A DNA stretch of 22,121 nt from a virus: IMG/VR virus record IMGVR_UViG_3300031578_003737, positions 1 through 22,121 of that record; one strand, given 5' to 3'. Shown here one piece after another: positions 4,273 through 20,497 of the stretch. The translations under genes were made by a program, and so were the position numbers. Position 1 is the stretch's first letter, and every line of letters begins with the position of its first letter. Under the pieces are notes generated by a model that saw only the letters and a list, made by a program, of their open reading frames with translations, searched no databases and had not been told where the DNA came from.

Positions 4273-4506
4273 ATGCGAAGGAGATACATTAGAAGGGGTA
4301 AGTGTAATCGGTGTGGATGGTGTTGCATAAAAGAGGGGTGTGAGCATTTGGCTTGGAATGGAAATATCGCAGTCTGTGAAATCTATGAAAGCAGATTTGA
4401 TCGCTGTAAATGGTTCCCACAAGCACCGCCTATATTGATTGATAAATGTGGGTACTACTTTCTTGATACTTGGGATGATAGAGTCGTTGGAGCCAGAGAG
4501 GTCTAA
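4273..4506 (+). CDS. YkgJ-like cysteine-cluster protein
   Basis: A 77-residue protein with eight cysteines, beginning with a basic N-terminus. Residues 11-23 form C-x2-C-x2-CC-x4-C (Cys11, 14, 17, 18, 23), with later Cys35, Cys45 and Cys59 in a CKWFP...KCGYYF context. The CxxCxxCC start and the later Cys spacing resemble the YkgJ/UPF0153 cysteine-cluster family, thought to bind zinc or an iron-sulfur centre; its biochemical role is not established. The ATG starts two bases after the previous stop, with no clear ribosome site, so translation is probably coupled. The stop overlaps the ATG of the next gene (TAATG). It is unusual to find this family at the head of phage structural genes. Confidence 0.7.
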   Translation: MRRRYIRRGKCNRCGWCCIKEGCEHLAWNGNIAVCEIYESRFDRCKWFPQAPPILIDKCGYYFLDTWDDRVVGAREV

Positions 4507-6032
4507 TGACCGTAACAATTACTGGTAAAAACTATCAATCTATAAGCGACTGCGAAGCCCTTGGAACGTGGGTTGGTAATAAGATTGTCCCTGTGTCAGA
4601 TTATTTCAAGCAGGGGTCAAACTCTCTTGGATTTACTCTTATTACTGCGGGAAACAATGATTGCTACCTTACGGGATCGTGGAATTTAAGCGCGACGCCA
4701 CACTTGAGAATGTGGCTGATGACCAGTTGCTTGAAGGAATTAGACTCAGACATCAACGGCGGGATTCAGATTTATGTAACGGGTGGAGGAAACACAGGCT
4801 ATTGGAAGATCATTGGAAAAGAGTCTTATCCAGGTGGTTGGTATAACTGCGTCGTTGATGTTAGTAGCCCACCTGATTTGGGTACTGCGCCCACTCTAAC
4901 ATCTGTCACAGTGATAGGGTTTAGACTTGTATTAACTGCGGCTCCCAAGAACATTCAGAACACATGGGTTGATAATGTTATCTGTTGCGATGGACTAATT
5001 TGCACCAGCGACGCCCAATTTGGTCTTCAAGAGATATATGATAAAGACAACGCACCAGCAGGTGCTTGGGGTGTAGTCAGAAAGATTGGTGGCGTTTATT
5101 TGCTCACCGGAAGCCTAACATTCGGAGATGCTTCTGGTTCTGAATCATGTGATTTCAAGGATGTTAGCCAGACGATAGTTTTTGAGAGTAGGAAAGTAAG
5201 CACAACGCTTTATGGCCTCATCGCTGTGAATAACACAGGTGTCTGCAAAGTTCAAATGGGGGATGCGGGCGTATCGGGCTGTATGGTAAGAACGCAATCA
5301 CTAACACAAACGCCTAAATATGCCATAACTTGTATAGACACTGATGTTTCAGATTTTAAGTTGCATGGGAGCACTTTCCTCGATGCGGGAATAATCTCTT
5401 TACCTCTTAATGGAGTTAATCGAGAAGTATTGAGTTGTGCCTTTGAAAAATGCGGGAAGGTAATAGCCAGTACATGCAAAGTGCAATACTGTAACTTCAT
5501 CTCATCGGATGGAGATGCGGTTTTGATAAACGATGATCCACATTACGTCACGGATTGTAACTTCATCAGTTGCACTAGAGGAGTCGAGATTGATGCGGTA
5601 GGAGATGGAACTTATGACTTTGATGCTTTGGTGTTTAGCGATGCTGGTTGGCCTCACGTTAATAACACATCGGGAAGCGCCCTGACGGTTGCAAATGGGC
5701 CTGGATCGAATGCCTCGACCTATACAGGCACTCAAGTTAATTTCAGTACATCAGTTCAATTAACAATGACTGTCAAAGATGAGCAAACTCCGCCCCAACC
5801 CGTCGAGGGAGCCTTTGCCTATATCGACGATCAGGACGATGAGCCATACATTATGAATACGACTACCAACGCGCAAGGTGTAGCAACAGTGCCTTACGAG
5901 GGTAGTACAGTTACGAATGCTAGGTGGAGGGTTAGAAAATATGGTTACAGAAATTTTAAGCAACTAATAAGTATAGCAAGTGATAGTATTAATCTTCCAG
6001 TAACGTTGGTTGTAGACCCGCAACAAACATAG
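4506..6032 (+). CDS. Virion structural protein with beta-helix-like region (fiber/adhesin candidate)
   Basis: A 508-residue protein without a signal peptide, dominated by short beta-strand-like segments. Residues from about 1 to 165 look like a jelly-roll, carbohydrate-binding type of domain (NSLGFTLITAG, WNLSATPHLRMWLMT, GGWYNCVVDVS). Residues from about 190 to 400 contain repeated rungs such as VSGCMVRTQS, VSDFKLHGSTFLDAG, VLSCAFEKCGKVI and VTDCNFISCTRGVEI. This is the pattern of right-handed parallel beta-helix tail spikes. A C-terminal module from about 415 (VKDEQTPPQPVEGAFAYI...RVRKYGYRNF) resembles Ig-like domains and recurs at the end of the next protein. It overlaps the upstream gene by one base. 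It is probably a tail, fiber or decoration protein; the exact role and any enzymatic activity are not visible. Confidence 0.75.
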   Translation: MTVTITGKNYQSISDCEALGTWVGNKIVPVSDYFKQGSNSLGFTLITAGNNDCYLTGSWNLSATPHLRMWLMTSCLKELDSDINGGIQIYVTGGGNTGYWKIIGKESYPGGWYNCVVDVSSPPDLGTAPTLTSVTVIGFRLVLTAAPKNIQNTWVDNVICCDGLICTSDAQFGLQEIYDKDNAPAGAWGVVRKIGGVYLLTGSLTFGDASGSESCDFKDVSQTIVFESRKVSTTLYGLIAVNNTGVCKVQMGDAGVSGCMVRTQSLTQTPKYAITCIDTDVSDFKLHGSTFLDAGIISLPLNGVNREVLSCAFEKCGKVIASTCKVQYCNFISSDGDAVLINDDPHYVTDCNFISCTRGVEIDAVGDGTYDFDALVFSDAGWPHVNNTSGSALTVANGPGSNASTYTGTQVNFSTSVQLTMTVKDEQTPPQPVEGAFAYIDDQDDEPYIMNTTTNAQGVATVPYEGSTVTNARWRVRKYGYRNFKQLISIASDSINLPVTLVVDPQQT

Positions 6033-6042
6033 GAGGAATAAA

Positions 6043-7857
6043 ATGCCTTTAGAATCCGATTTCACTGTGAATGATACGGCAAAAACGGTGACGCATATAG
6101 GTGGGACGGAGATTTTCACCGTATTAGCCTTTTTCCAATGGTTGGCTGCTAAGTTTGCTGCGGCAGCCTATATGGATGATGACTACCCCTTTGTATCAGA
6201 CACTCCGCAGGTTTATCGTTGGGTGAATGCTTGGGATATGGGAGACGAAGCATCGTATCAATTTTTGAAAGGTGGAGCAATCGAGAGTGCAGATGGCAAT
6301 AAACTGTTTGCCAACTTGTATTCGATTGGTTCTCAGTTTAGAAATTCAATGATCTACATAATCCAGGCCGATGCTGAGGTAACGCCTTGGTGGACACCTG
6401 GAAACATCGATATTCTCATCAAAGTTAGAGAGGGAGGTACTCCAATAGATAGTGGAAAGGTCATGGGATTTTCTAGGGATACAGATGCTCTATATGACCA
6501 CAACGAAGTTGACTTGGCTGCTGGTGGAAGAAACCCTGTTGGTATTAATACTTTTGATGACATCAACTATAAGGAGACGGGGGATATTTACCTCGATGTT
6601 GATACAGTAGCCAACTTTGATGCTGGCAACTTCGCTTACGGTGTAACATCTACGGCGTCAGGTAGAATACAATATGTCGATGTTACCAATACCAGGCTCT
6701 ATCTTTGCCAAGTAGAAGGAACTTTTGTGGTAACAGAGACAATTGTAGAAAGGGTGACTAGGGGTGGTACTAACTCAGATGGCACGGCGACCAATCACGC
6801 TACTACTGCTGAGTTTGATGTCATCAGGGGATATGATGACATTATGGAGGTCTTTGTCCAGAGAAAATTTGAGGGCGGCACGGTTGGTGGTGGCCCATTC
6901 ATAGTCGGTGAGGTTGTTAATCAGGCATCTTCTGGTTGGGCTGGTAAGTATGTAGCCATACTGAGCAACGTTCTTTATATGGAAAACACAACGGGCACGC
7001 CAGACAATACAGGCCAATTGGTAGGTGTTACATCAAGTGCAACTTATACACCAACTTCTACGTCTGCCCAAACTACCGTTGACAAGGACTTGAATAACGG
7101 TAATGGGCCACAACCTTACAACTGCGTGGTGGATTGTGCAGGTCGAACAGTTCTTCAAATTTACCAATATCTCAAATACATCAGTGCTCACAACTCAGTT
7201 GCAATAATAAACGGAGATGAGGGCGAGGAATATCGTTCAGCGAACGAGTCATTGCCATACACTGATACTAAGCAAGCTCCATTCGGCACATTCGCTGGTG
7301 GTACTTTCTTCGGCGCTAGAGGTATTTGGATTGAGGACTATGCAGTAGCGGCTTTCTCCCTTACTGATGCAGATGGCGATTTGCAGAATCCTCCAAACTA
7401 TCAGAAGGTTTCAGTTGCCCATGACGAATTAAATGGATGTCAGATTCTGATAGCAGAAAGGTCAGGGGCAAGCATCATTAAGAATCAATATGTAATAGAT
7501 ACAGTAACAACCACGACAATAGTTGTTACTACTGACATCAATCCTAATAAAGTTCCTCAAAGTGGTAATCTCAGGGTTGGAGACTGGCAAGCTACCTATG
7601 CAAGTTTTGCTAGTAAAACATTCTCAGGTGTATCCCCTGACCCGACTGGCAAAACTGGGGACTTGTATGTTCCTCAGTTAGATGTTCTTGCTGATTTTAC
7701 ATCTGAGGAGTCTGCCAATCTCATTCTAACTACCGCCTTTGATGTTAAGGCTAGGGTAAGGAAGTATGGGTGCAAGGATTACACAATGGATACTTCCTTC
7801 CCGACGACTGGTTTGGTGGTAACACCCATTCTAGCAACTGACCCACAGGCTACATAA
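6043..7857 (+). CDS. Large virion structural protein (tail/baseplate or decoration candidate)
   Basis: A 604-residue protein with a strong GGAGG ribosome site. It starts MPLESDFTVNDTAKTVTHIG and contains a conserved-looking acidic N-terminal part (MDDDYPFVSDTPQVYRW, WDMGDEASYQFL). Repeated Gly/Thr/Ser-rich beta modules follow at about residues 190-250 and 270-345 (each of the type 'GxxxG...TSTASG / VTSSAT'). Its C-terminus (ARVRKYGCKDYTM...TPILATDPQAT) matches the end of the preceding protein (RWRVRKYGYRNFK...TLVVDPQQT), so the two share a terminal domain. There is no transmembrane segment or catalytic motif. Structural assignment rests on composition, size and location among virion genes; which part of the particle it forms cannot be read from the sequence. 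Confidence 0.72.
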   Translation: MPLESDFTVNDTAKTVTHIGGTEIFTVLAFFQWLAAKFAAAAYMDDDYPFVSDTPQVYRWVNAWDMGDEASYQFLKGGAIESADGNKLFANLYSIGSQFRNSMIYIIQADAEVTPWWTPGNIDILIKVREGGTPIDSGKVMGFSRDTDALYDHNEVDLAAGGRNPVGINTFDDINYKETGDIYLDVDTVANFDAGNFAYGVTSTASGRIQYVDVTNTRLYLCQVEGTFVVTETIVERVTRGGTNSDGTATNHATTAEFDVIRGYDDIMEVFVQRKFEGGTVGGGPFIVGEVVNQASSGWAGKYVAILSNVLYMENTTGTPDNTGQLVGVTSSATYTPTSTSAQTTVDKDLNNGNGPQPYNCVVDCAGRTVLQIYQYLKYISAHNSVAIINGDEGEEYRSANESLPYTDTKQAPFGTFAGGTFFGARGIWIEDYAVAAFSLTDADGDLQNPPNYQKVSVAHDELNGCQILIAERSGASIIKNQYVIDTVTTTTIVVTTDINPNKVPQSGNLRVGDWQATYASFASKTFSGVSPDPTGKTGDLYVPQLDVLADFTSEESANLILTTAFDVKARVRKYGCKDYTMDTSFPTTGLVVTPILATDPQAT

Positions 7858-9193: not shown

Positions 9194-11008
9194 ATGCAAT
9201 TAACCACTAAAGACCTTTTATTGATCCGCGCTGCACTTATGCGCAACTTCACAATTGAGCAACTGGATAAGTCGGGATTAATTAACGAACCGATTGACAG
9301 TCGCACAATTCGCCTTGCCTTAGCAGAGGTTGATTTTGAGTTCTTCAAGATGTTCTACCTTGAGCATCACTTCTTTCTACCGTCTGCAAGGATGCACCGT
9401 GAAATTACTGAAGAGATTGAGTATATCATTCGCACGAAGGGGAAAATCTACAGCGCAGTCGTATGGCCACGTGGTTTCGCCAAAACCACTACTGTTACGC
9501 TCGCACTACCTCTTTGGTGTGCATTACTACGCAAGCGACGTTACATTCTAATCGTCTCCGATTCTCACGATCAGGCGAAGCAACAGCTTGCTAACCTACA
9601 AAGTGAACTAGAAAACAATGAACGTATTCGTGAAGACTTCGGGGACGTACAAGGGCGTGTGTGGCAGCGTTCCGAGATTGAACTTTCCAATCGTGTTCGT
9701 ATAGAGTCCCTTGGAACGGGCATGAAGATTCGTGGACGTAAGTATTTGCAATTCAGACCCGACCTCATTATTCTTGACGACATTGAGAACTTGAAGAGTG
9801 TGCAATCCAAGCTACAACGTGAGACAACCTACTCGTGGTTAACACAGGAGGTCATTCGTGCTGGTTGGGATGACACAAAAATCTTCATCGTAGGTAACTT
9901 CCTCCACTTCGATTGCCTACTGAAGCGTGTTGTAGCTAATCCAATGTTTAGGCACATGGTTTTTCAGGCCGTAGTCTCATGGGCTGAGAACCAAGCCCTC
10001 TGGGATACATGGCGCGGCCTCATAACCGACCTCAGTGATGAGCGTAAGAACGAGACGGCTAGTATGTTCTTCGAGCTAAACAAAGATGAGATGCTTAAAG
10101 GTGCTGAAAGTGCCTGGTCAGCAGGTTACTCCTACTATGATCTCATGGTCATAAAGGTTTCCGAAGGCGATGTGTCGTTCTTTACCGAGCTACAGAACGA
10201 TCCACGAGACCCATCGAGATGTATCTTCAGCCGTTGGTACACGTATAGAAAAGAGTTTCGACCCAACAAAGATGATGTACCAGAGCTTTGGTTAATCCCA
10301 AACAAAGAAGGTGCTTCAGTGCGCCTGATTGATTGTAAGATATTCGCATTCACTGATCCTTCGTTGGGTAAAACGTCATCCGCTGACTATTCTGCAATTG
10401 TTATTATCGCCAAAGCGCCTAGCAGACAGATGTTTGTCTTGGAAGCCGATCTGAAGAGGCGTCCACCGACGCAAATAATGGCGGATCAAAACGCATACAC
10501 ACTGGATTATACTTTCTCGCGTTGGGGAATTGAGAGCACACAGTTTCAGGCTTTCTTCGCGTCCGAGTCTGCACGTGTGAGTATGGAAGCCGGTACTAAT
10601 ATTCCATTCATGCAGGTCAACCAGCAAAGCAATAAAGAGCTTCGCATACAATCGCTACAACCCGATTTGGAGAATGGTTACTTGCTCCTGCTCGAAGGTG
10701 GACAGGATTTGTTGAAGCAACAGTTAACCGAGTTCCCGGTTGGTGCTTACGATGACGGCCCAGATGCTTTGGAGGGTTGTCGTACTATAGCACAGAAGTG
10801 GGAACCTATTATGAGTTCTGAGATAATGCAATCAGAAGCCCACGACTTTGGAAGAACATCCGTACCACATGGTTATAGACCGATTGGCTCTAGTGATCCT
10901 TACGCCGAGCATGAAGCAAAAGCGATAGAAGAGGAGAACGCACGTCGTGTGCTACAGAAACTCCCACCACTACCAGAGCCAGCGTTTGTACCCATAATGT
11001 TCTGGTGA
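9194..11008 (+). CDS. terL: Terminase large subunit
   Basis: A 604-residue packaging motor with ATPase and nuclease parts in the normal order. The ATPase has a Walker A-like loop WPRGFAKTT (residues 91-99) with Lys98, and a Walker B LIILDDIE (191-198) with Asp195-Asp196. A coupling-motif-like segment (IFIVGN, 230-235) follows. The RNase H-like nuclease begins at FAFTDPSLGK (385-393), with Asp388 as a likely metal ligand. WGIESTQFQ (Glu447) and DDGPDALE (520-527) supply further acidic residues. The length is slightly above the usual 450-600. The protein uses ATP to move DNA into the prohead through the portal and cuts the concatemer. It is preceded by small structural-type genes and followed by a MazG-like gene; the portal gene lies 7 kb downstream beyond the sugar cassette. 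Confidence 0.95.
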   Translation: MQLTTKDLLLIRAALMRNFTIEQLDKSGLINEPIDSRTIRLALAEVDFEFFKMFYLEHHFFLPSARMHREITEEIEYIIRTKGKIYSAVVWPRGFAKTTTVTLALPLWCALLRKRRYILIVSDSHDQAKQQLANLQSELENNERIREDFGDVQGRVWQRSEIELSNRVRIESLGTGMKIRGRKYLQFRPDLIILDDIENLKSVQSKLQRETTYSWLTQEVIRAGWDDTKIFIVGNFLHFDCLLKRVVANPMFRHMVFQAVVSWAENQALWDTWRGLITDLSDERKNETASMFFELNKDEMLKGAESAWSAGYSYYDLMVIKVSEGDVSFFTELQNDPRDPSRCIFSRWYTYRKEFRPNKDDVPELWLIPNKEGASVRLIDCKIFAFTDPSLGKTSSADYSAIVIIAKAPSRQMFVLEADLKRRPPTQIMADQNAYTLDYTFSRWGIESTQFQAFFASESARVSMEAGTNIPFMQVNQQSNKELRIQSLQPDLENGYLLLLEGGQDLLKQQLTEFPVGAYDDGPDALEGCRTIAQKWEPIMSSEIMQSEAHDFGRTSVPHGYRPIGSSDPYAEHEAKAIEEENARRVLQKLPPLPEPAFVPIMFW

Positions 11009-11045: not shown

Positions 11046-11420
11046 ATGACAAGTGAGGAGTTGGCAACTGCTGTTAGGAATTTCTGTGCACATTTTGTTA
11101 TGCCGGAAGGTCTTTTGCAGCTTTGCGAAGAGCGTGTTCTTGGCCCAGGCGATGAGCAATACTCACATGGCAATCAGCAGGTGTTTGAATTGCTACCAAT
11201 TGCCAAACTTGCTGATATGTTTGAAGAGGAGATTGCAGACGCGCTTGTGTATGTAGTAATGTTGTGCATCCGTTTCAAACAGTGGAGCTATCATTCCACT
11301 GTTCAGCACCTAGAGACTTTTGCCAAAGCCTTAATGGTAGCGTACTGTGATCTCGAAATGTCTCTCGATGATGAGCTTTTCGCCGAAAAGGTAAGCGAGG
11401 ACGATGCCAAAGTTTGTTGA
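11046..11420 (+). CDS. MazG-like nucleotide pyrophosphohydrolase
   Basis: A 124-residue all-helical protein with a GGGGA site before the ATG. The central segment MFEEEIADALVYVVMLCIRF (residues 58-77) has the metal-binding ExxxD-type motif EExxD (Glu61, Glu62, Asp65) followed by a hydrophobic helix. This is the signature of all-alpha NTP pyrophosphohydrolases of the MazG/dUTPase-2 superfamily. A basic/Gly-rich loop (YSHGNQQVFELL) precedes it, as in related phage enzymes. Such enzymes hydrolyse (d)NTPs to monophosphates and pyrophosphate; in phages they are thought to adjust nucleotide pools or blunt alarmone signalling. The substrate cannot be told from sequence. The last 17 bases overlap the HNH gene start. 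Confidence 0.68.
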   Translation: MTSEELATAVRNFCAHFVMPEGLLQLCEERVLGPGDEQYSHGNQQVFELLPIAKLADMFEEEIADALVYVVMLCIRFKQWSYHSTVQHLETFAKALMVAYCDLEMSLDDELFAEKVSEDDAKVC

Positions 11421-11964
11421 TGAGACGGGGAATCATTATGGGAGATTAACAGTATTGAAGCGTGCCGAAAGGGTACATGGAAAGGACAGCGCATACTGGC
11501 ATTGTCGTTGTGACTGTGGAAACGAAACTATTGTTCGTAGCACCTGTCTGCGCGGTGGACATACGAAAAGCTGTGGTTGTCTGCAAGAGGAGCGACGCTG
11601 GGAGGCTCTCGCTTTACCGGAGGGTGTAGCTGCTTTTAATTCAATGGTCAGCAATATACAGCATGGTGCTAAGGCACGCCAACTTGAATGGAATCTAACG
11701 GATGAACAGGTGGCCTACCTGACCAAACAACAATGTTATTACTGTGGTGCAGAACCATCACAAGTGTCACATCCTGCCAAATGTAATGGGGTGTATGTTT
11801 ACAACGGACTTGACCGCATTGACAACGATAAGGGTTACATGATTGACAATGTAGTTCCTTGCTGTATCAAGTGTAACCGTGCAAAGCGCACAATGACGTT
11901 GGGAGAGTTCGAGTCGTGGATTGTGAGAGTATATGAGCAGCTTATGGAGCGTACTGGGAAATGA
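11404..11964 (+). CDS. HNH homing-type endonuclease 1
   Basis: A 186-residue free-standing endonuclease. Residues 9-60 form a zinc/DNA-binding module: GNHYGRLTVL, then HCRCDCGNE (Cys34, 36, 38) and KSCGCL (Cys57, 59). The HNH-type nuclease occupies about residues 110-170: CYYCG (Cys111, Cys114), LDRIDNDKGY and NVVPCCIKCNRAK (Cys153/154, Cys157). The first His of canonical HNH is replaced by the DRIDN form common in phage enzymes. It should cut DNA at a long recognition site and promote its own spread. It lies directly before the sugar cassette, with starts and stops overlapping both neighbours. It is paralogous to the 19634-20497 protein. Confidence 0.9.
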   Translation: MPKFVDETGNHYGRLTVLKRAERVHGKDSAYWHCRCDCGNETIVRSTCLRGGHTKSCGCLQEERRWEALALPEGVAAFNSMVSNIQHGAKARQLEWNLTDEQVAYLTKQQCYYCGAEPSQVSHPAKCNGVYVYNGLDRIDNDKGYMIDNVVPCCIKCNRAKRTMTLGEFESWIVRVYEQLMERTGK

Positions 11965-12776
11965 CACAAGATTCTGTTGCTACCACGATAATTATTCCGA
12001 CCTTTAATGGTAAGGAGCACTTGGAGCGTTGTTTGTCGGCTATTAGTCGGAATACTGCCGCGCCTTATAAACTGCTGATTGCTGATGACAGGAGCTCGAA
12101 CCCTGCGTTTCGTGCTTATTTACGTGGACTTAAAAGTAGGTACAGCATTATAAAGTCACATGTGCGCCGTGGTTTTGCCGGCATCAACAATTGGGCTGTA
12201 TCCAAAACAGATACCAGGTACATTTGTCTCCTCAATTCTGATACTGAGCCTGGTTATCAGTGGTTGACGTTTATGCTAGAAGAACTTGACAACAATGGGG
12301 ATGTTGGTATAGTTGGTGCTAAATTGATGTATCCACCGCAGAAGGGTTGGAGTCTCGGTGGTAGCATTCAGCACGCAGGTGTCGCACGCAATAGCGACGG
12401 GCTCCCATATCACATATTTGGTGGACAGCCTGTGGACTTTCCAGCGGCTAATGTGCGCCGAGAACTGAATGCTGTAACTTTTGCGTGTGTGCTAATCCGT
12501 CGCACGTTATGGGACGAATTAGGTGGTCTCGATAAAGGCTACATCATAGGACAATTTGAAGACATCGACTTTTGCTGGAAAGCACGAAAGAACGGTTGGA
12601 AAATCGTGTATCAACCAAAAGCTACACTTCTACATTATGAGCATGGTTCAGGTGATGATGTTGTCTTGAAACATAGTATGCAAAATAGGGATCGTCTTAT
12701 GCGTGTTTGGGGGAACTTGGGCAGTGATGAGCATTTGTTTACGCAGGGGGAAAGATGTTTGAGTTTTCCGTTGTAA
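11961..12776 (+). CDS. GT2-family glycosyltransferase A
   Basis: A 271-residue GT-A-fold transferase. It opens with TIIIPTFNGKEHLERCL, has the nucleotide-sugar binding pair ADD (41-43) and a metal-binding NSD (92-94, a DxD variant). Further on it has the acceptor/catalytic segment QFEDIDFCWKARKNGW (198-213), and the HYEHG motif (225-229) typical of rhamnosyl/galactosyl-type GT2 enzymes. It transfers a sugar from a nucleotide donor to an unknown acceptor, in the cytoplasm since there are no membrane segments. It starts in an ATGA overlap with HNH endonuclease 1 and overlaps the next transferase by 22 bases. It is the first gene of the seven-gene sugar cassette. The donor sugar cannot be assigned. 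Confidence 0.9.
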   Translation: MTQDSVATTIIIPTFNGKEHLERCLSAISRNTAAPYKLLIADDRSSNPAFRAYLRGLKSRYSIIKSHVRRGFAGINNWAVSKTDTRYICLLNSDTEPGYQWLTFMLEELDNNGDVGIVGAKLMYPPQKGWSLGGSIQHAGVARNSDGLPYHIFGGQPVDFPAANVRRELNAVTFACVLIRRTLWDELGGLDKGYIIGQFEDIDFCWKARKNGWKIVYQPKATLLHYEHGSGDDVVLKHSMQNRDRLMRVWGNLGSDEHLFTQGERCLSFPL

Positions 12777-13627
12777 TTGCTGTTTATAACCGACGAGAGA
12801 GCCTATATCTCACTCTCTGTGCGTTGGACAAGACGCTATTGCACTACCAACAGCCTGTTGAAATAGTTGTCGTAGACGATGGTTCTACAGATAATCCTCT
12901 CGAAGTCATGTTTGAGTTTCAAGATAAATTTGCACTGCAATATCGTTGGCAACCACACAACGGCTTTCAAGAGGCTTTGGCGATCAATCGCGGATGTGCA
13001 ATTGCACGTGGTCACAACTTTCTAATCACGGACGCTGACATCCTTCTAACACCGGAATCACTTGCACATCTTGCCAACATCATTCGAGCAAATCCAGGAA
13101 TTATCGTTGCTGGTCGCTATGATTGGATGCTACCAATGAAAATACGTCCATATGACATTTACTACAATTGGGACAAAATAGTTGACGGAACACTTCCTCC
13201 AGCGCAGTTTGGTGGTAATCCAAAAGGTTTTATCGGCGTCGATCCACGGCACATAAGCGACCCACATCTGTTTGATGGAGATAGATTACATACACAGTTT
13301 GCCGCGATACTTTTTGCTGGCGTTCTAATGTTTCCCAGAGCACAGTACACTGCATTGGGTGGTTTTGATGAGCAAATGGTTGGGCATGGTGGTCAGGACT
13401 GTGAGTTGAGTATTCGTGCACAACAGGCAGATTATCACGTGATTTTTTCAGGGCTGGTGCATGGGTTTCATATGTATCACGACAGGGATCAGGTTGCCAA
13501 TCAGACGGCATGTAACAGGAATGTCCAATACATAGCAAAGAAACACAACCTGGAAGATGTGGGCCTGTACATGTGGCATGTTGGGAACGTTATGGGCATA
13601 GCACGTGCAGGGGAAAAGTTACCATGA
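12755..13627 (+). CDS. GT2-family glycosyltransferase B
   Basis: A 290-residue GT-A transferase. FSVVIAVYNRRESLYLTLCA opens the nucleotide-binding fold, and VVVDDGSTD (38-46) and TDADIL (92-97) are the donor and metal sites. GGFDEQMVGHGGQDCELSIR (202-221) matches the C-terminal galactosyltransferase-like region, where ED/QDxEL contacts the acceptor and base. A His-rich stretch (HGFHMYHDRD) follows and could add a metal ligand. The segment GRYDWMLPM (120-128) is repeated in the next gene as GRYDWMPPM, and the DxD motifs lie at the same residue numbers. Genes B and C are thus a tandem duplication that has diverged. No membrane anchor. Donor and acceptor unknown. Confidence 0.9.
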   Translation: MFEFSVVIAVYNRRESLYLTLCALDKTLLHYQQPVEIVVVDDGSTDNPLEVMFEFQDKFALQYRWQPHNGFQEALAINRGCAIARGHNFLITDADILLTPESLAHLANIIRANPGIIVAGRYDWMLPMKIRPYDIYYNWDKIVDGTLPPAQFGGNPKGFIGVDPRHISDPHLFDGDRLHTQFAAILFAGVLMFPRAQYTALGGFDEQMVGHGGQDCELSIRAQQADYHVIFSGLVHGFHMYHDRDQVANQTACNRNVQYIAKKHNLEDVGLYMWHVGNVMGIARAGEKLP

Positions 13628-14481
13628 CAAGTATTTGCGTCGTGATGGCAGTACACAATCGTATAGACAGTGTGCACTGTGCTCTCCATTCATGGGCATT
13701 GCAAACACGCAAGGGCTTTTCTGTAGTTGTTGCAGATGATGCAAGCACCGAGGACATGTGTGGGTTAGTTAAAGAATACATGGGTGCACTAAATGTATTT
13801 TATGTCTCTACTGGAGGCTCTGTGCCTCGCACTGTTCCAGTGGCGCTGAATGTAGGTACAAAAGCAGTGCCTTTAGAAACGACACATCTTTGGTACACAG
13901 ATGGCGACATCATCTTCAATAGTAAAGCTATGCAGGTGGCCTACGAACACATTGCGCTGCATCCTAATAGAGTCATAACTGGTCGGTATGATTGGATGCC
14001 ACCCATGATCTTTTCACCACAAGATTTGGAACGGGACTTTCAAGGGTTTGTAGATTGCAGATTCCCGCGTAGGGATGTTGATGCTGCTCATATAGTGCGA
14101 CGTGTGGATCATCGAACAGGAAGTCGTGTACCAAACTGGTTCCAACATCAACTTCTCGACTCTTGCAGGCCCATTCTAGGAGCCAACGTAATCATGCCGG
14201 TGCAAGCATGGTATGACATTGGCGGTTGGGACGAGCACATTCCTGGCGCAAATGCAAATGATTGCGACTTTGGTTGGTGTTTAACTGATGCGGGTTATCA
14301 TCTACTGACTTGTGAGTGCATCATAGGCTATCATCAGTGGCATCCGAGAGACATCAAAACGCTGGAACTCTTTAAGGTATCCTTGCCGTATATCTTTCGT
14401 AAGCATGGTGAGGAAGTTCCTGACCAGTGGAAGCCCTATGATACATTTAAGGAAAAGAATTGTGGCCAAGTTCACCTATGA
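13624..14481 (+). CDS. GT2-family glycosyltransferase C
   Basis: A 285-residue GT-A transferase. The ATG at 13624 (MTSICVVMAVHNRIDSVHCA) is preferred over an upstream start because it lies in an ATGA overlap with gene B, has GGGGAAA upstream, and begins exactly where the paralogue does. VVVADDAS (34-41) and TDGDII (92-97) supply donor and metal binding. GGWDEHIPGANANDCDFGW in the C-terminal half corresponds to the acceptor region of gene B, with NDCDF replacing QDCEL. A long overlap with the next frame is avoided if that gene starts at 14462. Its function is probably related to B but on a different acceptor or linkage. Confidence 0.88.
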   Translation: MTSICVVMAVHNRIDSVHCALHSWALQTRKGFSVVVADDASTEDMCGLVKEYMGALNVFYVSTGGSVPRTVPVALNVGTKAVPLETTHLWYTDGDIIFNSKAMQVAYEHIALHPNRVITGRYDWMPPMIFSPQDLERDFQGFVDCRFPRRDVDAAHIVRRVDHRTGSRVPNWFQHQLLDSCRPILGANVIMPVQAWYDIGGWDEHIPGANANDCDFGWCLTDAGYHLLTCECIIGYHQWHPRDIKTLELFKVSLPYIFRKHGEEVPDQWKPYDTFKEKNCGQVHL

Positions 14482-15463
14482 TGGTGTACAAATAGAAGTC
14501 TCTGAACCTAGACGCTGGCCTATCGAGTGGATTACATTTAGGTGTCATCCATGTACCGATTGGTTTGGTGTAGGACAGTATATGAGTGGAGAACTTCCCG
14601 AAGCTCCAATTGTTATTTGTAAGGATTCCTTTGTTGTGTTGGATGGTTGGCATAGATTGGCAGCAGCATGGCGATTGGGTCATCATTATATTATGGTACA
14701 ATTTGCAGACTTTCATCTCGGAGGTGCTCAAGATCGCTGTCACATAGATAAGGTGAATTGGATGGAAACGTTGCGTCCGTGGGTTGATCTCGAATGTATC
14801 TCAGGAAGCTATCATAGAAAAGATTTTGATGTTACCTCGTTTGCTGAGGTAGTTGCTTCACTTAAGCAAGCAGGCGACATTCATATGCCAGTAGCACGAT
14901 GGTGGGAACATACAAGGGCGGTTGTCTGCTTGGGCGTATTAGTCGGTCGGCGCATCTTAGATGTAGGGACAAGAGAAAGTATTATTCCAGCTTATCTTGC
15001 GGACAGGGGTGCTTACGTTGTGGCTACGGATTTGAACGTAAAGCAAATAGCGTTGCACCCTAACGTTGAGATCACACAGGCAGATGCAACGGCGTTGCAG
15101 TTTGAGGATGCCAGTTTCGATCATGTTCTTTGCACTGCTTGCATAAAACACATCACCAATGATACATTAGCAGTATCTGAGATGTTGAGGGTGTTAAAAC
15201 CTCGCGGACTATTGGCATTGTCATTCGATTTTGGACAAGAATATGCAGAGTATCCTAGTGAGGCTACAGGACGGCGCATCTACAATAAGGCAGCCGTTTA
15301 TACACGTCTTATTGATCCGTTCCGAGATGTGGCTATGTTGTGTGAGCCTGCCGACTTTGACCGCAATGATTGGAATGACTGGCCAATCGAAAACCAAGCG
15401 CCCTCTGTCTTTAGGAAAGGCGTAAACGTGCAAGTAGCATTTGTGCTGATGAGGAAACGATGA
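14462..15463 (+). CDS. ParB-like domain fused to SAM-dependent methyltransferase
   Basis: A 333-residue two-domain protein. The GTG at 14462 is chosen because AAGGA lies about eight bases upstream; the frame is open from 14405, deeper in the previous gene. The N-terminal domain (about 1-90) has PIVICKDSFVVLDGWHRLAAAWRLG, the ParB/sulfiredoxin-type D-G-x-H-R motif at Asp61-Arg65. ParB-fold proteins bind nucleotides such as CTP. The C-terminal domain (about 160-260) is a class I methyltransferase: ILDVGTRES (165-173), VATDLN (187-192), ADATALQF (207-214) and VLCTACIKHI. The expected Gly-x-Gly after DVG is altered to GTRES, seen in some sugar-cluster methyltransferases. It probably methylates a sugar or glycan; the ParB-like part may sense or process a nucleotide. 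Confidence 0.82.
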   Translation: MAKFTYDGVQIEVSEPRRWPIEWITFRCHPCTDWFGVGQYMSGELPEAPIVICKDSFVVLDGWHRLAAAWRLGHHYIMVQFADFHLGGAQDRCHIDKVNWMETLRPWVDLECISGSYHRKDFDVTSFAEVVASLKQAGDIHMPVARWWEHTRAVVCLGVLVGRRILDVGTRESIIPAYLADRGAYVVATDLNVKQIALHPNVEITQADATALQFEDASFDHVLCTACIKHITNDTLAVSEMLRVLKPRGLLALSFDFGQEYAEYPSEATGRRIYNKAAVYTRLIDPFRDVAMLCEPADFDRNDWNDWPIENQAPSVFRKGVNVQVAFVLMRKR

Positions 15464-16512
15464 AAATAGCATTCGTGTACACCAAGGGGCGACCAGGAAG
15501 TTGGGCAGATCAAACTTTTGACTTGCAGGACTTTGGTGGTTCTGAAGGAAGCATGATTCGGTTTGCACAGGAATTTGTTGGTCTTGGCCATGAGGTAACG
15601 ATTTACACTTCAGGGGCCAAAGCACAGCGACACGCTGGTGTTGAGTGGCACGACTTTGTTGGTGGTATATGCTATGACCAGACTTTTGACGTGGTTATTT
15701 CTGTGCGATTTCCTGTTGCCTTTGCTGCTGAGGCTGAACTTGGTGCGTTGTTTTGCACAGACCCAGAAATACCAGAGTTGCAACGTTGGGTTGCACGCGG
15801 AGACATAAATCTGGTCATCGTCATCAGTGAGTACCAGAAGCGCCTGTTTCAGTCGCAACACCCAATAGATGAGAAGCTATATCTCGTTAGTAATGCAGGT
15901 GTGGTTTACGCAGACTATGTTGGTAAGAACATCTCTAAGGTGCCAGGAAGATGTATCTACTGTAGTGTAGCAGATCGTGGTTTGGAACACTTGGTATCAA
16001 TATGGCCAAAGATTCGTAGGGAAGTTCCTTGGGCAACGTTGCATATTACTGGAGGTTATTCTTTGTGGGGCTTAGATATACCACTACAAAAACAGCCTGT
16101 CCTTCGTCAGATGTTAGCGTTAGAGGGTGTGACTTATTTGGGGGTTATTTCTCGTGAGAAGCTAATTGAGGCACAATTGCAGAGTCAGGTGTTGCTACTT
16201 CCAGGGAAAGAGCTCTCTCCAGAAATGTGTTGTATGGCTGCTATGGAGTGTGCGGCAGCAGGTAATGTTTTGATAGTTGGTGACATAGCGGCTCTTCCTG
16301 AGCGTGTCATCGAGGGAGAGACTGGTTATGCTGTTAAGCATGAGGGTGATTGGCAGACAGTTTTTGCACAAAAGGCAATAGTGGCACTTACCAGTCCTCG
16401 CTTACAAGAAATGCAAGCACTAGCTCGTGCAGGCGAGTGTGCACATGATTATTCAGTATTGGCTCCTGAGTGGATAACACGCTTCGAGGAAGAGATAAAT
16501 GCACGCAGGTAA
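15460..16512 (+). CDS. GT4-type (GT-B fold) glycosyltransferase
   Basis: A 350-residue protein with a GAGGAAA ribosome site and an ATGA overlap with the upstream gene. KIAFVYTKGR starts the first Rossmann domain, and DFGGSEGSMIRFAQEFVGLGHEVTIYTSG is the family's Gly-rich acceptor loop followed by the typical 'LxxxGHEVTIYT' strand. CSVADRGLEHLVSIWPKI begins the second, donor-binding domain. LLLPGKELSPEMCCMAAMECAAAGNVLIVGD carries the E-x7-E-like nucleotide-sugar motif of GT4 enzymes. It should work as a cytoplasmic retaining transferase. It differs in fold from the three GT2 enzymes, so the cassette builds at least two kinds of linkage. Donor unknown. Confidence 0.88.
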   Translation: MKIAFVYTKGRPGSWADQTFDLQDFGGSEGSMIRFAQEFVGLGHEVTIYTSGAKAQRHAGVEWHDFVGGICYDQTFDVVISVRFPVAFAAEAELGALFCTDPEIPELQRWVARGDINLVIVISEYQKRLFQSQHPIDEKLYLVSNAGVVYADYVGKNISKVPGRCIYCSVADRGLEHLVSIWPKIRREVPWATLHITGGYSLWGLDIPLQKQPVLRQMLALEGVTYLGVISREKLIEAQLQSQVLLLPGKELSPEMCCMAAMECAAAGNVLIVGDIAALPERVIEGETGYAVKHEGDWQTVFAQKAIVALTSPRLQEMQALARAGECAHDYSVLAPEWITRFEEEINARR

Positions 16513-17038
16513 GAATGTCACTATCTATGAGTTGGCAAAACTGGTGTATCCTGAAAACGTCACGCTTGGGCACCACGTCATCATAGACGATTTCGTTTTC
16601 ATCGTGGCTAAACTGCCATCTGAGATTGGCAGCTATGTTCACATAGCTTCGTTCACCTCCATCACTGGAGGTGGGAGTTTTAACATAGGAGACTACAGTA
16701 CGCTATCCAGTGGTGTTCGCATATTTACTGGGACAGAAAACGTTAACGGGGACAGTTTGCTAGGCGCAGCAATTCCAGCGCCGTATCGAAAAGCAATCCG
16801 TTCGCACGTACAGATTGGAAAGCATTGTATGGTGGGTGCCAACACTGTTGTTCTGCCAGGCGTGGTTATTCCTGATGGTACAGTGGTTGGAGCGATGTCT
16901 CTAGTATTGCAAGATACGACCTTAGAATCTTGGAGCATTTACGCTGGATGTCCTGTACGAAAACTCAGAGGGCGATCTAGTATGATGATACTTGCACTAG
17001 AAGCAAAGTTGCGTGCAGACGAAGGAGCGGCGACGTGA
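16499..17038 (+). CDS. Hexapeptide-repeat acyltransferase (acetyltransferase)
   Basis: A 179-residue left-handed beta-helix protein. Hexapeptide rungs run from about residue 22 to 140: VTLGHHVIIDDFVFI, IGSYVHIASFTSITGG, FNIGDYSTLSSGVRI, VQIGKHCMVGANTVVLPGVV and IPDGTVVGAMSLV. His48 in VHIASF is in the usual catalytic-His position, and SIYAGCPVRKLRGR is the typical exit of sugar O- or N-acetyltransferases. The family transfers acetyl from acetyl-CoA, usually as a trimer. GAGGAAGAG precedes the ATG, and the gene overlaps both neighbours (14 and 4 bases). It sits next to a sugar aminotransferase, so N-acetylation of an amino sugar (as by FdtC/QdtC/WbbJ-type enzymes) is likely, though O-acetylation is possible. 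Confidence 0.9.
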   Translation: MHAGKNVTIYELAKLVYPENVTLGHHVIIDDFVFIVAKLPSEIGSYVHIASFTSITGGGSFNIGDYSTLSSGVRIFTGTENVNGDSLLGAAIPAPYRKAIRSHVQIGKHCMVGANTVVLPGVVIPDGTVVGAMSLVLQDTTLESWSIYAGCPVRKLRGRSSMMILALEAKLRADEGAAT

Positions 17039-18198
17039 AACTTGCGATATTTGGGGCAAAGCCAGCATTTAGCACTCCGTTGCACGTTGGTAGGCCCAAC
17101 CTTGCTGCGTCTACAAAACTTCTTTCTGCCTTTGAGAAGATACTTGATAGCAAATGGCTCACGAACGACGGTTGTTGGGTTCGTTCACTTGAAGGTGAAA
17201 TAGGGCAATACTTGAACGTAAAACATTGCATAGCTGTGGCAAACGGAACGCTAGGATTGGAGATAGCAGCTAAAGCCCTTATGCCTGAATGCGGTGAGGT
17301 CATTGTACCTTCGTTCACATTCGCTGCGACCCCACACGCATTGGCGTGGCAGGGATATAAGCCTGTTTTTGCAGACATCAATATGAGCACTCATGTTCTT
17401 GATCCCAATGATGTGGAAGCGAAAATCACTGACCGTACTATTGGCATTCTCGGTGTACACACTTGGGGTACTCCATGTGCTGTAGATGCGTTAACTGTAA
17501 TAGCGAAAAAGCACGGCTTGAAGCTCTTTTTTGACTCTGCTCATGCGTTTAGTTGTAGTAGTATGTACGATGGTAGAAGTTCTGGAAGTTTTGGTTGTTG
17601 TGAAGTATTCTCATTTCACGCCACGAAGTTTTTCAACACAGTTGAGGGTGGTGCAATTACCACCAATGATGCTAGATTAGCTCAAAGGTTTAGAGAATTG
17701 CGGAACTTTGGGTTTGTTGGAGACGGTACGCACGAGGCATCCGATATTGGTATTAATGCCAAAATGAGTGAACTCCATGCTGCTGTGGGTGTGATAAACT
17801 TGGTGGAGATTGGGTCGTTTGTTACCCGCAATTTTGTGAACTATGCTGGATATATGCACGGTCTACAACATCCAAATCTGTGTGTCTATCCACATGAAGG
17901 TGGGAACTATCAATATGTGGTTATTGAACTGTTGAAAGGGGCACTGTCGGCAGACGTTTTAACTAAAGTGTTGCGTGCTGAGAATGTTCTAGCGAGACGC
18001 TATTTTTCACCGCCATGTCACAAGATGGTTCCATACAACCAGGAGGCGCATTTTCTACCAATAACTGATGTCGTCTCGGACAGGGTTTTTGTCCTACCAA
18101 CCGGCATGTCAGTGGGGCAGCAGGATGTAGACAAAATCTGCGAGCTAATTCTATATTGTGTTGACAATGCAGAGGCGATTATGGAGAAAGTAACATGA
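17035..18198 (+). CDS. DegT/DnrJ/EryC1-family PLP sugar aminotransferase
   Basis: A 387-residue aminotransferase starting at a GTG with AAGGAG upstream. GRPNLAAS is the family's N-terminal entry, ANGTLGLEIAAKALM (70-84) binds PLP phosphate, and FFDSAHAFS (165-173; Asp167, His170) contacts the pyridine nitrogen. FSFHATKFFNTVEGGAI (192-208) holds the Schiff-base Lys198, and GINAKMSELHAA (239-250) contacts the sugar nucleotide. The enzymes transfer an amino group from glutamate to a keto sugar nucleotide (3- or 4-position). No gene for the keto sugar intermediate is present, so the host must supply it. Together with the acyltransferase it could make an N-acetylated dideoxy amino sugar for the transferases. 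The stop overlaps the portal gene (ATGA). Confidence 0.92.
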   Translation: MKLAIFGAKPAFSTPLHVGRPNLAASTKLLSAFEKILDSKWLTNDGCWVRSLEGEIGQYLNVKHCIAVANGTLGLEIAAKALMPECGEVIVPSFTFAATPHALAWQGYKPVFADINMSTHVLDPNDVEAKITDRTIGILGVHTWGTPCAVDALTVIAKKHGLKLFFDSAHAFSCSSMYDGRSSGSFGCCEVFSFHATKFFNTVEGGAITTNDARLAQRFRELRNFGFVGDGTHEASDIGINAKMSELHAAVGVINLVEIGSFVTRNFVNYAGYMHGLQHPNLCVYPHEGGNYQYVVIELLKGALSADVLTKVLRAENVLARRYFSPPCHKMVPYNQEAHFLPITDVVSDRVFVLPTGMSVGQQDVDKICELILYCVDNAEAIMEKVT

Positions 18199-19619
18199 CA
18201 GATACACCTAAAAGGTCAGGTTTTATTGGTCGGGTTCTTGCAAAGATTCGTACAATGCTTAGTACACCACTTGTACCTGAGACTCAGCCGACTTCCGCTA
18301 TCGGCGTTGTAGAAGACAACCTGGATATGCTCTCGAATCTTTTCTTCAATATCTCGACCAAGCGCGTGAATGTGTACATAGATACTGAGGAAATGGATGA
18401 AACCGTTGACGAGGTAACTTCAGCACTTGATATTCTGGCTGACAATGCTGTTAACTCGGAGCAAGGTGCTGGTCAATCTTTCATCCTTCACTATGTCGGC
18501 GTGCCTGAAGCTCTAGTGAATAACATAGAGCAAATGCTGGCACGCACTAGGTGGGCAGATAAAGCCTACTCGTTTGCTAGGCAGACTCTCAAATACGGTG
18601 ACTGTTTTGTTCAGTTTGTCTTTGACAAACAATTCAATATTGTGCGCCTTATGGATATGCCTGCAAGCACTATGAGGCGAAATGAGGACAAACAGGGTTT
18701 GCTGCTGAATGGTAGTAAGCAGGGTGAATTTGCATTTGAGCAGTATGTCAATGCCGGTATGCAGTTTGTCGCTGGCTTTTATCCGTGGCAGATGGAACAT
18801 ATGCGATGGAATCGCGTTGGGGGTAGCAAGTATGGAACTTCGCTGCTCTTCACAGCACGTACAGCATGGAAAAAGTTGCAGGCAATGGAGGAAGCATTAG
18901 TAATTAACTGGCTTACTCGCGCCTTCGCTCGCTTACTATTTATCATTGACACCAGTGGTAAAGGGCCGATGGAATCCCTGCAAGCTATAGAAGACTTTAA
19001 ACACACGCTGAGGACGCGTGATGTCGCTACTGATACAAAAGGCACGGAGCAACTATCAGTGGTCAAAGATGTCTACATTGCTAAGTCGTATCGTGAAATG
19101 GGAGGTCGTGTTCAGGAGGGTTTGACAGACGTTAAGGTACTAGATACCAGCAACACAGGATTCTGGAACTTGTCAGCAATTGAGTATTACCAGAACAAGA
19201 TCATCACGTCACTGAAAGTTCCAAAGGCACACCTTGGCATAGAGCGTGACATCAATGCTAAGGCTACCTTGCAGCAACAGGATCGTAGATTTGCACGCAC
19301 CGTCAGGCGTGTGCAATCAATGTTGAGCATGTCGATAGAGCATACCATTGATCTGCAATTGCTAATGTGGGGACTTGATCCTAACAGTGTGGAATACAAA
19401 ATTGTGTGGCCGGCCCCTAGTTGGGAAGATGAACAGGAGAAGAGTGTCACCACGAAGAACTATGTTGATGCTGCTGCGGTAGCACTGAAGTTGGGTATCG
19501 TAGACCACACTTACATTCGTAGTAATTGGTTGGGTATGTCGCAGAAGGAGCTTAGGGAAATGAGTGGGTTGGAAAAAGATGTTGAGCCAGAAGCAGGGCC
19601 GAGGTCGAACGCTGATTAG
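18195..19619 (+). CDS. Portal protein (T4 gp20-like)
   Basis: A 474-residue portal of the T4 gp20-like family. KYGDCFVQFVFDKQFNIVRL (133-152) is the wing/stem region, WNRVGGSKYGTSLL (205-218) the conserved core, and YYQNKIITSLKVPKAHLG (about 335-352) the 'xYFxxKLxxALxVP' family signature. This is followed by the basic RRFARTVRRVQ helix. The protein forms the dodecameric channel for packaging and the head-tail joint. The C-terminus (SNWLGMSQKELREMSGLEKD...) is repeated in divergent form at the end of the next gene. It starts in an ATGA overlap with the aminotransferase and is separated from TerL by the sugar cassette. Confidence 0.93.
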   Translation: MTDTPKRSGFIGRVLAKIRTMLSTPLVPETQPTSAIGVVEDNLDMLSNLFFNISTKRVNVYIDTEEMDETVDEVTSALDILADNAVNSEQGAGQSFILHYVGVPEALVNNIEQMLARTRWADKAYSFARQTLKYGDCFVQFVFDKQFNIVRLMDMPASTMRRNEDKQGLLLNGSKQGEFAFEQYVNAGMQFVAGFYPWQMEHMRWNRVGGSKYGTSLLFTARTAWKKLQAMEEALVINWLTRAFARLLFIIDTSGKGPMESLQAIEDFKHTLRTRDVATDTKGTEQLSVVKDVYIAKSYREMGGRVQEGLTDVKVLDTSNTGFWNLSAIEYYQNKIITSLKVPKAHLGIERDINAKATLQQQDRRFARTVRRVQSMLSMSIEHTIDLQLLMWGLDPNSVEYKIVWPAPSWEDEQEKSVTTKNYVDAAAVALKLGIVDHTYIRSNWLGMSQKELREMSGLEKDVEPEAGPRSNAD

Positions 19620-19633
19620 TGAGGGATTTTGTT

Positions 19634-20497
19634 ATGCCAGCGATGGTCAACGAAATGGGTAATCGCTACGAAAGATTGACGGTGCTGGAACGCACTCAAA
19701 ACAACAGACATGGAGCAGCACAGTGGTTATGCAGATGTGATTGTGGAGAGTTAACCACTGCGCTTGGTAGTAGTCTCCGTTTTGGGAGGACGAAAAGTTG
19801 TGGATGTTTACACAAGGAAGCTGTGAGGCGTGTGGGCGTGTCCAACGTTGTTAATCGTGAAGGTCATAAATATGGCAGGTGGACTGTCATTAAAAGGTGT
19901 GGTTCTAATGGAAGTGGGCAGGCGGCTTGGTTGTGCAAATGTGACTGTGGAAAGGAGGGTGTCGTTACAGGTACTAACCTTCAATCAGGAACTTCTAAGA
20001 GCTGTGGATGTTTGCGGAGGGAAATTGTAAGAAGGTTACACACTTTACCTGAAGGCGAAGCAGCTTTTAACGCAGTTGTTAGTGTAATGGAGGGTAGTGC
20101 TAGGGTACGCGGTTACGAATGGCAGCTAACAAAAGAGCAAATTCGTTACCTTACCAAACAATCGTGTCATTATTGTGGGGATGCTCCATCACAGGTTTAT
20201 AAAAACCCACGGGTAAATGGTAATTATGTCTACAACGGCCTAGACCGCGTTGACAACGACAAGGGTTATACAACTGATAATGTTGTGTCTTGTTGCTTTG
20301 TGTGTAATCGCGCAAAAAGCGTGATGACTTTGAAAGAGTTTAGATCGTGGGCCTTTAGGCTTTGTGAACACCTTGCTGGTTGTACGAGCTGGATGGACAT
20401 GAGTCAAAAACAATTGAAAGAGCTTGAGGGAATAGAGAAGAACATAAAACCAGAACCGGAATCGGAACCAGAACCAGAATCAGACAACAAAGAGTGA
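19634..20497 (+). CDS. HNH homing-type endonuclease 2, carrying a portal-like C-terminal tail
   Basis: A 287-residue paralogue of the 11404-11964 endonuclease. The ATG at 19634 is chosen over an upstream GTG because GAGGGA lies seven bases before it and the protein then starts MPAMVNEMGNRYERLTVL, like MPKFVDETGNHYGRLTVL in its paralogue. It has two copies of the CxCDCG/SCGC zinc module (residues 10-60 and 80-126) where the paralogue has one. The HNH core follows: CHYCG, LDRVDNDKGY and NVVSCCFVCNRAK. About 37 residues after the point where the paralogue ends resemble the portal C-terminus (SWMDMSQKQLKELEGIEK versus NWLGMSQKELREMSGLEK), followed by an acidic Pro/Glu/Ser run. That tail is probably a leftover of an interrupted portal gene. 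Confidence 0.9.
   Translation: MPAMVNEMGNRYERLTVLERTQNNRHGAAQWLCRCDCGELTTALGSSLRFGRTKSCGCLHKEAVRRVGVSNVVNREGHKYGRWTVIKRCGSNGSGQAAWLCKCDCGKEGVVTGTNLQSGTSKSCGCLRREIVRRLHTLPEGEAAFNAVVSVMEGSARVRGYEWQLTKEQIRYLTKQSCHYCGDAPSQVYKNPRVNGNYVYNGLDRVDNDKGYTTDNVVSCCFVCNRAKSVMTLKEFRSWAFRLCEHLAGCTSWMDMSQKQLKELEGIEKNIKPEPESEPEPESDNKE
20384..20497 (+). repeat. Divergent copy of portal C-terminal coding sequence
   Basis: This segment encodes SWMDMSQKQLKELEGIEKNI plus an acidic tail, resembling the portal end encoded at 19521-19619. The DNA copies are clearly diverged. The extra segment starts where the paralogous HNH protein stops, marking a probable insertion junction. Confidence 0.72.

What the first reader, a model, noticed from the sequence alone, without database searches (positions are those of the whole stretch)
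14462..15463. ParB-like nucleotide-binding domain fused to a methyltransferase
The N-terminal third has the ParB/sulfiredoxin D-G-x-H-R motif (LDGWHRLAAAWRLG) and the C-terminal part is a class I methyltransferase with an altered glycine loop (GTRES). ParB-fold proteins can bind CTP or act as small kinases or nucleases. Inside a sugar cassette this pairing could couple nucleotide binding to methylation of a glycan, or mark a DNA/RNA-linked sugar. I do not recognise this domain order as a described enzyme.
Basis: partly seen in the sequence, partly recalled or inferred. Interest (0 to 1): 0.7.

Follow-up and report, generated by a model that had tools for sequence, protein, structure and literature searches.

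The report
ParB-like domain fused to sugar-cassette methyltransferase
A family of uncultured bacteriophages carries, inside a sugar-building gene cassette placed among its head genes, a two-part protein that joins a ParB-type (probably nucleotide-binding) domain to a methyltransferase and probably puts a finishing methyl group on a sugar.

Summary
The gene at 14462-15463 (+) encodes one continuous protein: an N-terminal ParB/sulfiredoxin-fold domain (DGWHR, residues 61-65), a variable linker, and a small-molecule class I methyltransferase (Pfam Methyltransf_11, E 1.4e-17) with the altered loop LDVGTRES. It is not an assembly error: four other distinct phage lineages carry the same full-length fusion at 60-65% identity, and both domains are under purifying selection. 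Pfam does not detect the ParB part; profile-profile comparison (92%, decoys below 2%) and fold search do. The gene sits in a translationally coupled cassette (GT2s, this gene, GT4, hexapeptide acyltransferase, DesI-like aminotransferase) between terminase and portal. Best reading: a glycan-tailoring methyltransferase with a nucleotide-binding module, acting on an amino-deoxysugar glycan, probably of the virion. Whether the ParB-like part gates methylation or phosphorylates the sugar first (a WbdD-like methyltransferase-kinase) is open; one SerK/SbnI catalytic acid aligns, the other cannot be placed. ParB-fold/methyltransferase fusions in phages were reported in a 2025 survey, so the architecture is not new in kind; this divergent subfamily in a glycan cassette is a new variant.

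The parts
14462..15463 (+). ParB-like/methyltransferase fusion gene (333 aa; GTG start)
14462..14725 (+). ParB/sulfiredoxin-fold domain, residues 1-88
   Evidence: AF2; fold searches; hhalign; mean pairwise identity 68% among 5 members
14642..14656 (+). Box II (P motif) DGWHR, residues 61-65, invariant 5/5
14726..14881 (+). Linker, residues 89-140, least conserved (53%)
14882..15460 (+). Class I SAM methyltransferase domain, residues 141-333
   Evidence: Pfam Methyltransf_11 E 1.4e-17; 65% mean identity
14957..14980 (+). Methyltransferase motif I, LDVGTRES (LDVGSRES in L003)
11961..12776 (+). GT2 glycosyltransferase a
   Evidence: Pfam
12755..13627 (+). GT2 glycosyltransferase b
   Evidence: Pfam
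13573..14481 (+). GT2 glycosyltransferase c, directly upstream in 5 of 5 lineages
   Evidence: Pfam
15460..16512 (+). GT4-type glycosyltransferase, start overlaps the fusion's stop (ATGA); next recognisable gene downstream in 5 of 5 lineages
   Evidence: Pfam Glyco_trans_1_4
16499..17038 (+). Hexapeptide-repeat acyltransferase
   Evidence: Pfam; NCBIfam
17035..18198 (+). DegT-type sugar aminotransferase, closest to DesI
   Evidence: Pfam E 2.4e-88; TIGR04427 403 bits, below its cut-off of 650
9194..11008 (+). Terminase large subunit flanking the cassette
   Evidence: PHROG 38 E 1.4e-93
18195..19619 (+). T4-type portal protein; start overlaps the aminotransferase stop (ATGA)
   Evidence: Pfam Portal_T4 E 4.7e-32

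Best explanation
The gene encodes a glycan-tailoring enzyme of a phage sugar cassette. The cassette makes an amino-deoxysugar (DesI-like aminotransferase, hexapeptide acyltransferase, and in one relative a 4,6-dehydratase) and assembles it with GT2/GT4 glycosyltransferases; the C-terminal domain then transfers a methyl group from SAM to a sugar of that glycan. The N-terminal ParB/sulfiredoxin-fold domain binds a nucleotide through its DGWHR motif, ATP being the likeliest, and makes methylation depend on it, either as a switch or by acting on the same sugar first. Position between terminase and portal, with overlapping stop/start codons, suggests that the glycan is made late and put on the virion. 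Shown: the fusion, both domain identities, conservation, cassette, overlaps. Inferred: substrate, nucleotide, virion target, coupling.
For: ParB-like fold and invariant GxxR/DGxHR box; best matches of the other domain are small-molecule methyltransferase families, among them a D-glucose O-methyltransferase and the mycofactocin-oligosaccharide methyltransferase model; no DNA amino-methyltransferase motif. GT2c upstream and GT4 downstream in 5 of 5 lineages; hexapeptide acyltransferase and DegT in 5 of 5 (for L003 the DegT lies across the join of a record with a 114-nt terminal repeat). L003's cassette has a Polysacc_synt_2 dehydratase, E 1.9e-81, and its record a CmcI-type methyltransferase. 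Stop/start overlaps ATGA, GTGA, ATGA. Both domains conserved: 68% and 65% identity against 53% for the linker, pN/pS about 0.27 with synonymous sites saturated. ATP binding by bacterial ParB-fold/SAM-methyltransferase fusions: PMC12704722, section 8 read.
Against: No substrate, nucleotide or virion glycan was measured. The methyltransferase models are poor (pLDDT about 40 or less), so no substrate pocket could be compared. In the cited survey 17 of 28 purified ParB-fold proteins bound no nucleotide. The glycan could go to the host envelope or to DNA instead. The methyltransferase core also matches the PADLOC model mad2, of a defence-system protein, in 5 of 5 members, best E 8e-13, about as well as other generic methyltransferase models.
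Confidence: 0.5

Rival explanations
1. Methyltransferase-kinase cap enzyme. The ParB-like domain is a small kinase of the SerK/SbnI type that phosphorylates a sugar hydroxyl; the methyltransferase then methylates that phosphate (or the sugar), ending the chain, as WbdD does with an unrelated kinase fold.
For: D61, H64 and R65 align with DGHHR of SerK and DGVHR of SbnI; SbnI needs Glu20 and Asp58 for kinase activity (passage in PMC9641203). SerK/SbnI are among the fold matches (Z 5.3-6.8). O-antigen enzymes pair methyltransferases with two different kinase folds: WbdD (PMC3482155, abstract) and Klebsiella O7 ORF6 (PMC11231755, passages).
Against: The second catalytic acid (SerK E30, SbnI E20) could not be placed: alignments disagree in Box I; simple ungapped counting by eye puts a proline there, with invariant D33 three residues on. 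WbdD was not among the 60 listed PDB matches of the methyltransferase. Known ParB-fold kinases act on free serine.
Confidence: 0.15
2. Nucleic-acid methyltransferase: the ParB-like part recruits or gates a DNA/RNA methyltransferase used against host restriction, as proposed for phage ParB/methyltransferase fusions.
For: The survey suggests anti-defence or phage-host roles for phage ParB/Methyltransf_23 fusions; mad2 match E 8e-13; L003's cassette holds an N6_N4 DNA methyltransferase.
Against: No [DNS]PP[YFWH] and no PC[QN] in 5 of 5 members; no DNA-binding domain in Pfam; always between glycosyltransferases.
Confidence: 0.1
3. The ParB-like part is a relic that only holds the protein or docks a partner glycosyltransferase, without nucleotide binding.
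For: Pfam's ParB model no longer detects it; many ParB-fold proteins bound no nucleotide in vitro.
Against: It is at least as conserved as the methyltransferase and far more than the linker, and DGWHR is invariant in 5 of 5.
Confidence: 0.2

Closest known systems
Phage and bacterial ParB-CTPase-fold/methyltransferase fusions (Methyltransf_23, N6_N4) of Kaljevic et al. 2025, PMC12704722
   Same: ParB-fold domain plus methyltransferase in one chain, in phages; Methyltransf_23 matches here above its cut-off (8 of 8 records)
   Different: That survey searched with PF02195, which does not detect this domain. Its text holds 'glycosyltransferase' 0 times by the search count.
SerK (Thermococcus) and SbnI (Staphylococcus) free serine kinases
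   Same: Fold and D-G-x-H-R motif
   Different: No methyltransferase; act on serine; second catalytic acid not placed here
WbdD and Klebsiella O7 ORF6 methyltransferase-kinase terminators
   Same: Methyltransferase joined to a nucleotide-using module inside a glycan gene cluster
   Different: Unrelated kinase folds, opposite domain order, coiled-coil ruler; no sequence match to WbdD among the 60 rows listed
Sulfiredoxin
   Same: Fold; H-R of the signature binds phosphates in Srx (PMC4619093, passages)
   Different: The catalytic cysteine of GCHR is tryptophan here in 5 of 5

Membership tests
ParB/sulfiredoxin superfamily | Fold | tested here: met
   modest scores but one superfamily fills the top rows
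ParB/sulfiredoxin superfamily | Box II GxxR | tested here: met
   G62-W-H-R65 in 5 of 5
ParB/sulfiredoxin superfamily | Profile similarity to ParB_N | tested here: met
   hhalign 91.9%, aligned over 36 columns around Box II only
Pfam PF02195 ParB_N as curated | Score above the gathering cut-off | tested here: not met
ParB/sulfiredoxin superfamily | NTP binding | not testable with these tools
   needs purified protein
Canonical ParB (ParABS) | ParA-binding box, HTH and C-terminal dimer domain | tested here: not met
   box absent 5 of 5; only methyltransferase domains above cut-off in Pfam
Sulfiredoxin | Catalytic Cys in GCHR | tested here: not met
SerK/SbnI-type kinase | Catalytic Asp of DGxHR | tested here: met
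   D61
SerK/SbnI-type kinase | Catalytic Glu (SerK E30, SbnI E20) | tested here: inconclusive
   Box I alignment unstable
SerK/SbnI-type kinase | Phosphoryl transfer | not testable with these tools
   needs purified protein
Class I SAM methyltransferase, Methyltransf_11 type | Score above cut-off | tested here: met
   64.6 bits against 21.2
Class I SAM methyltransferase, Methyltransf_11 type | Textbook motif I E/DxGxGxG | tested here: not met
   D-V-G-[TS]-R-E-S in 5 of 5: Asp and first Gly kept, later Gly replaced; I treat this as a variant of the motif, since the curated profile is met
DNA N4/N6 amino-methyltransferase | [DNS]PP[YFW] | tested here: not met
   0 of 5
WbdD-type methyltransferase-kinase | Methyltransferase plus kinase in a glycan cluster | tested here: inconclusive
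   methyltransferase and cluster present; kinase activity of the ParB-like part unknown
PNAS 2025 phage ParB/Methyltransf_23 fusions | PF02195 plus PF13489 in one protein | tested here: not met
   PF13489 met in 8 of 8 records, PF02195 not met in the window

The most novel reading that the evidence does not exclude
A methyltransferase-kinase cap enzyme whose kinase is a ParB/sulfiredoxin fold: the phage phosphorylates a sugar of its own virion glycan with a SerK-like domain and methylates that phosphate, giving a capped phage glycan. It would be a new kinase fold in this role and, as far as my searches go, the first ParB-fold kinase for sugars and the first such cap from a virus.
Probability: 0.14. 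Interest if true: 0.8.

Novelty: new variant of a known kind. Interest (0 to 1): 0.42.

Why it matters
It places the ParB nucleotide-switch fold inside glycan assembly, away from chromosome partition, in a family that the standard Pfam model misses. It offers a compact protein in which to test whether ParB-fold domains fused to methyltransferases gate catalysis or phosphorylate the substrate, a question that the 2025 survey left open. It also marks phage head-gene cassettes as a source of tailored amino-deoxysugar glycans.

Tried and rejected
Assembly error between two genes: rejected, 5 distinct full-length members. Canonical ParB and sulfiredoxin chemistry: rejected. DNA amino-methyltransferase: disfavoured. 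Bacterial full-length homologues: the single genome-contig scan gave one locus, L017, only a methyltransferase. The N-domain profile over 392 genomes of that phylum gave hits in 6 (best E 1.3e-4); on reading, L119 (DGHHR) and L122 (DGEHR) look ParB-like, L120, L121 and L124 look like chance, and L123 (one stop inside) was not judged. Cultured phages: no match covering 80% of the protein, N-domain 4 weak hits; plasmids 45 records with weak N-domain hits, of the 20 listed many named ParB or HTH proteins. A wider set of 70 viral loci with the acyltransferase: the fusion in 7, all records already known; L042 is cut off before the place. Whole-record search of 18 other records, chosen from the 63 others: 2 hits, both in the methyltransferase part only. 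A DGWHRLA-xx-W DNA pattern found only the 7 known records. Structure of the methyltransferase part: pLDDT about 40, not used. One search used 13 ParB sequences after I dropped 10 of 23 picks that were antisense or misread frames. Shuffle control: the real SerK, SbnI and phiM9 fragments scored above all shuffles that were scored (452, 474 and 387 of 500 each); the hhalign match to the SerK fragment alone was only 40%. Paper searches showed no paper on a ParB/methyltransferase fusion in a glycan cassette, in an open-licence library only; Freeman et al. 2023 on virion glycosylation was seen only as cited in passages of PMC12619734 and PMC10877033. The meaning of PADLOC mad2 beyond its label, and 3bus being a sugar O-methyltransferase, would be recall and are not relied on. 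Structures found by the second aligner are limited to Foldseek's own candidates, so families not listed there are not excluded.

Full report
The window is a whole viral record of 22,121 bases, which I take for a fragment of a tailed phage: terminase large subunit at 9194-11008 (PHROG 38, E 1.4e-93) and a T4-type portal at 18195-19619. Between them lies a cassette of three GT2 glycosyltransferases, the gene in question, a GT4-type glycosyltransferase, a hexapeptide acyltransferase and a DegT aminotransferase. The reading frames overlap at the fusion/GT4, acyltransferase/aminotransferase and aminotransferase/portal junctions (ATGA, GTGA, ATGA), so the cassette looks translationally coupled to the portal.

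The frame 14462-15463 is open and GTG 14462 has a good ribosome site. Four further distinct full-length relatives, 60-65% identical, occur in seven other viral records. Mean pairwise identity is 68% for residues 1-88, 53% for the linker and 65% for the methyltransferase; synonymous sites are saturated while pN is about 0.23 in both domains. A chance joining of two genes is excluded.

The N-terminal domain is ParB/sulfiredoxin-like although Pfam does not say so. Its AF2 model, with pLDDT from 47 to 83 per ten-residue block over residues 1-90, finds ParB-N, sulfiredoxin, SerK and SbnI structures first, at modest Foldseek E-values of 0.02 and up; in the second aligner 32 of 34 listed rows are that group at Z 5.3-7.4, then Z 2.1. 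A profile comparison with 13 ParB_N sequences from genomes chosen independently gave 91.9%, over 36 columns around the P motif, against at most 1.7% for ten decoy blocks. PHROGs ParB families match weakly, E 0.005 and 0.02 for the window domain. The motif D61-G-W-H64-R65 is invariant in five members.

The C-terminal domain is a small-molecule class I methyltransferase with motif I D-V-G-[TS]-R-E-S. Its PDB sequence matches include antibiotic, phosphoethanolamine, ubiquinone-type and D-glucose O-methyltransferases; NCBIfam adds a mycofactocin-oligosaccharide methyltransferase at E 4.3e-7, far below its cut-off. The DNA amino-methyltransferase motif is absent. A match to PADLOC mad2 (E 8e-13) covers the same core and is no stronger than other generic matches. 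The models of this part are too poor for a substrate argument.

The cassette is the best clue to the substrate. A GT2 lies upstream and the GT4 is the next recognisable gene downstream in 5 of 5 lineages, with a 138-aa frame with a weak DnaJ-zinc-type match between in L003. The aminotransferase is nearest to DesI, the 4-aminotransferase of dTDP-4-dehydro-6-deoxyglucose (403 bits, below the cut-off of 650). L003's cassette adds a Polysacc_synt_2 dehydratase nearest to PseB, and its record, which has a 114-nt terminal repeat, carries a CmcI-type methyltransferase and the DegT across the join. So a 4-amino-4,6-dideoxyhexose is the likely building block. Virion glycosylation by phage glycosyltransferases is known from mycobacteriophages (as cited in PMC12619734 and PMC10877033, passages); that this glycan goes to the virion is my inference from gene position.

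What the ParB-like part does is open. In ParB-fold proteins an Arg-to-Ala change in GxxR abolishes nucleotide binding, and bacterial ParB-fold/SAM-methyltransferase fusions bind ATP; 11 of 28 purified proteins bound any NTP (PMC12704722, section 8). SerK (PMC5120207, passages) and SbnI show that the fold can be a kinase; Glu20 and Asp58 of SbnI are needed (PMC9641203, passage). Here the Asp aligns (D61), the Glu cannot be placed. In O-antigen assembly, methyltransferases are joined to kinases of two unrelated folds, WbdD (PMC3482155, abstract) and Klebsiella O7 ORF6 (PMC11231755, passages). A ParB-fold kinase in the same role is therefore a real, testable possibility; I give it about 0.15.

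Novelty. Phage ParB-fold fusions to Methyltransf_23 and N6_N4 domains are in print (PMC12704722, passages and sections 6, 8, 9 read). This family differs in having a ParB-like domain that PF02195, that survey's query, does not detect, and in sitting in a glycan cassette. In the collections searched it is confined to eight viral records of five lineages; cultured phages and the scanned genomes gave no full-length member. I call it a new variant of a known kind.

Noticed in passing
window 11404-11964 and 19619-20497: Two related ORFs (N-x-Y-x-R-L-T-V-L repeats, a zinc-like CxCG pattern and an LDRxDNDKGY...CNRAK end that looks HNH-like to me) lie near either end of the cassette; Pfam finds nothing at E 0.01. 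They may be homing-endonuclease-type insertions.
   Followed up: partly
L003 2501-3244 and the end of its record: Two N6_N4-type DNA methyltransferase genes, alike at their N- and C-termini, lie inside the sugar cassette of this relative (the second by sequence likeness only).
   Followed up: partly
L002 2493-4292, L005 3467-5278, L009 3440-5260: GT2a and GT2b, separate overlapping genes in the window, are one fused two-domain protein of about 600 aa in three relatives.
   Followed up: partly
   Followed up: no
L027 161-2367: On a Streptomyces plasmid a class I methyltransferase gene is followed by a DGMHR ParB-like/HTH protein, a two-gene arrangement with the same two domain kinds.
   Followed up: no
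L047, L048, L051: The acyltransferase-aminotransferase pair recurs side by side in other phage records in which the fusion was not found, so it looks like a mobile amino-sugar module.
   Followed up: partly
window 4506-7857: Two large ORFs (508 and 604 aa) upstream of the terminase with similar C-terminal ends (VRKYGYRNFKQ / VRKYGCKDYTM), no Pfam hit for the first; perhaps paralogous structural proteins.
   Followed up: no
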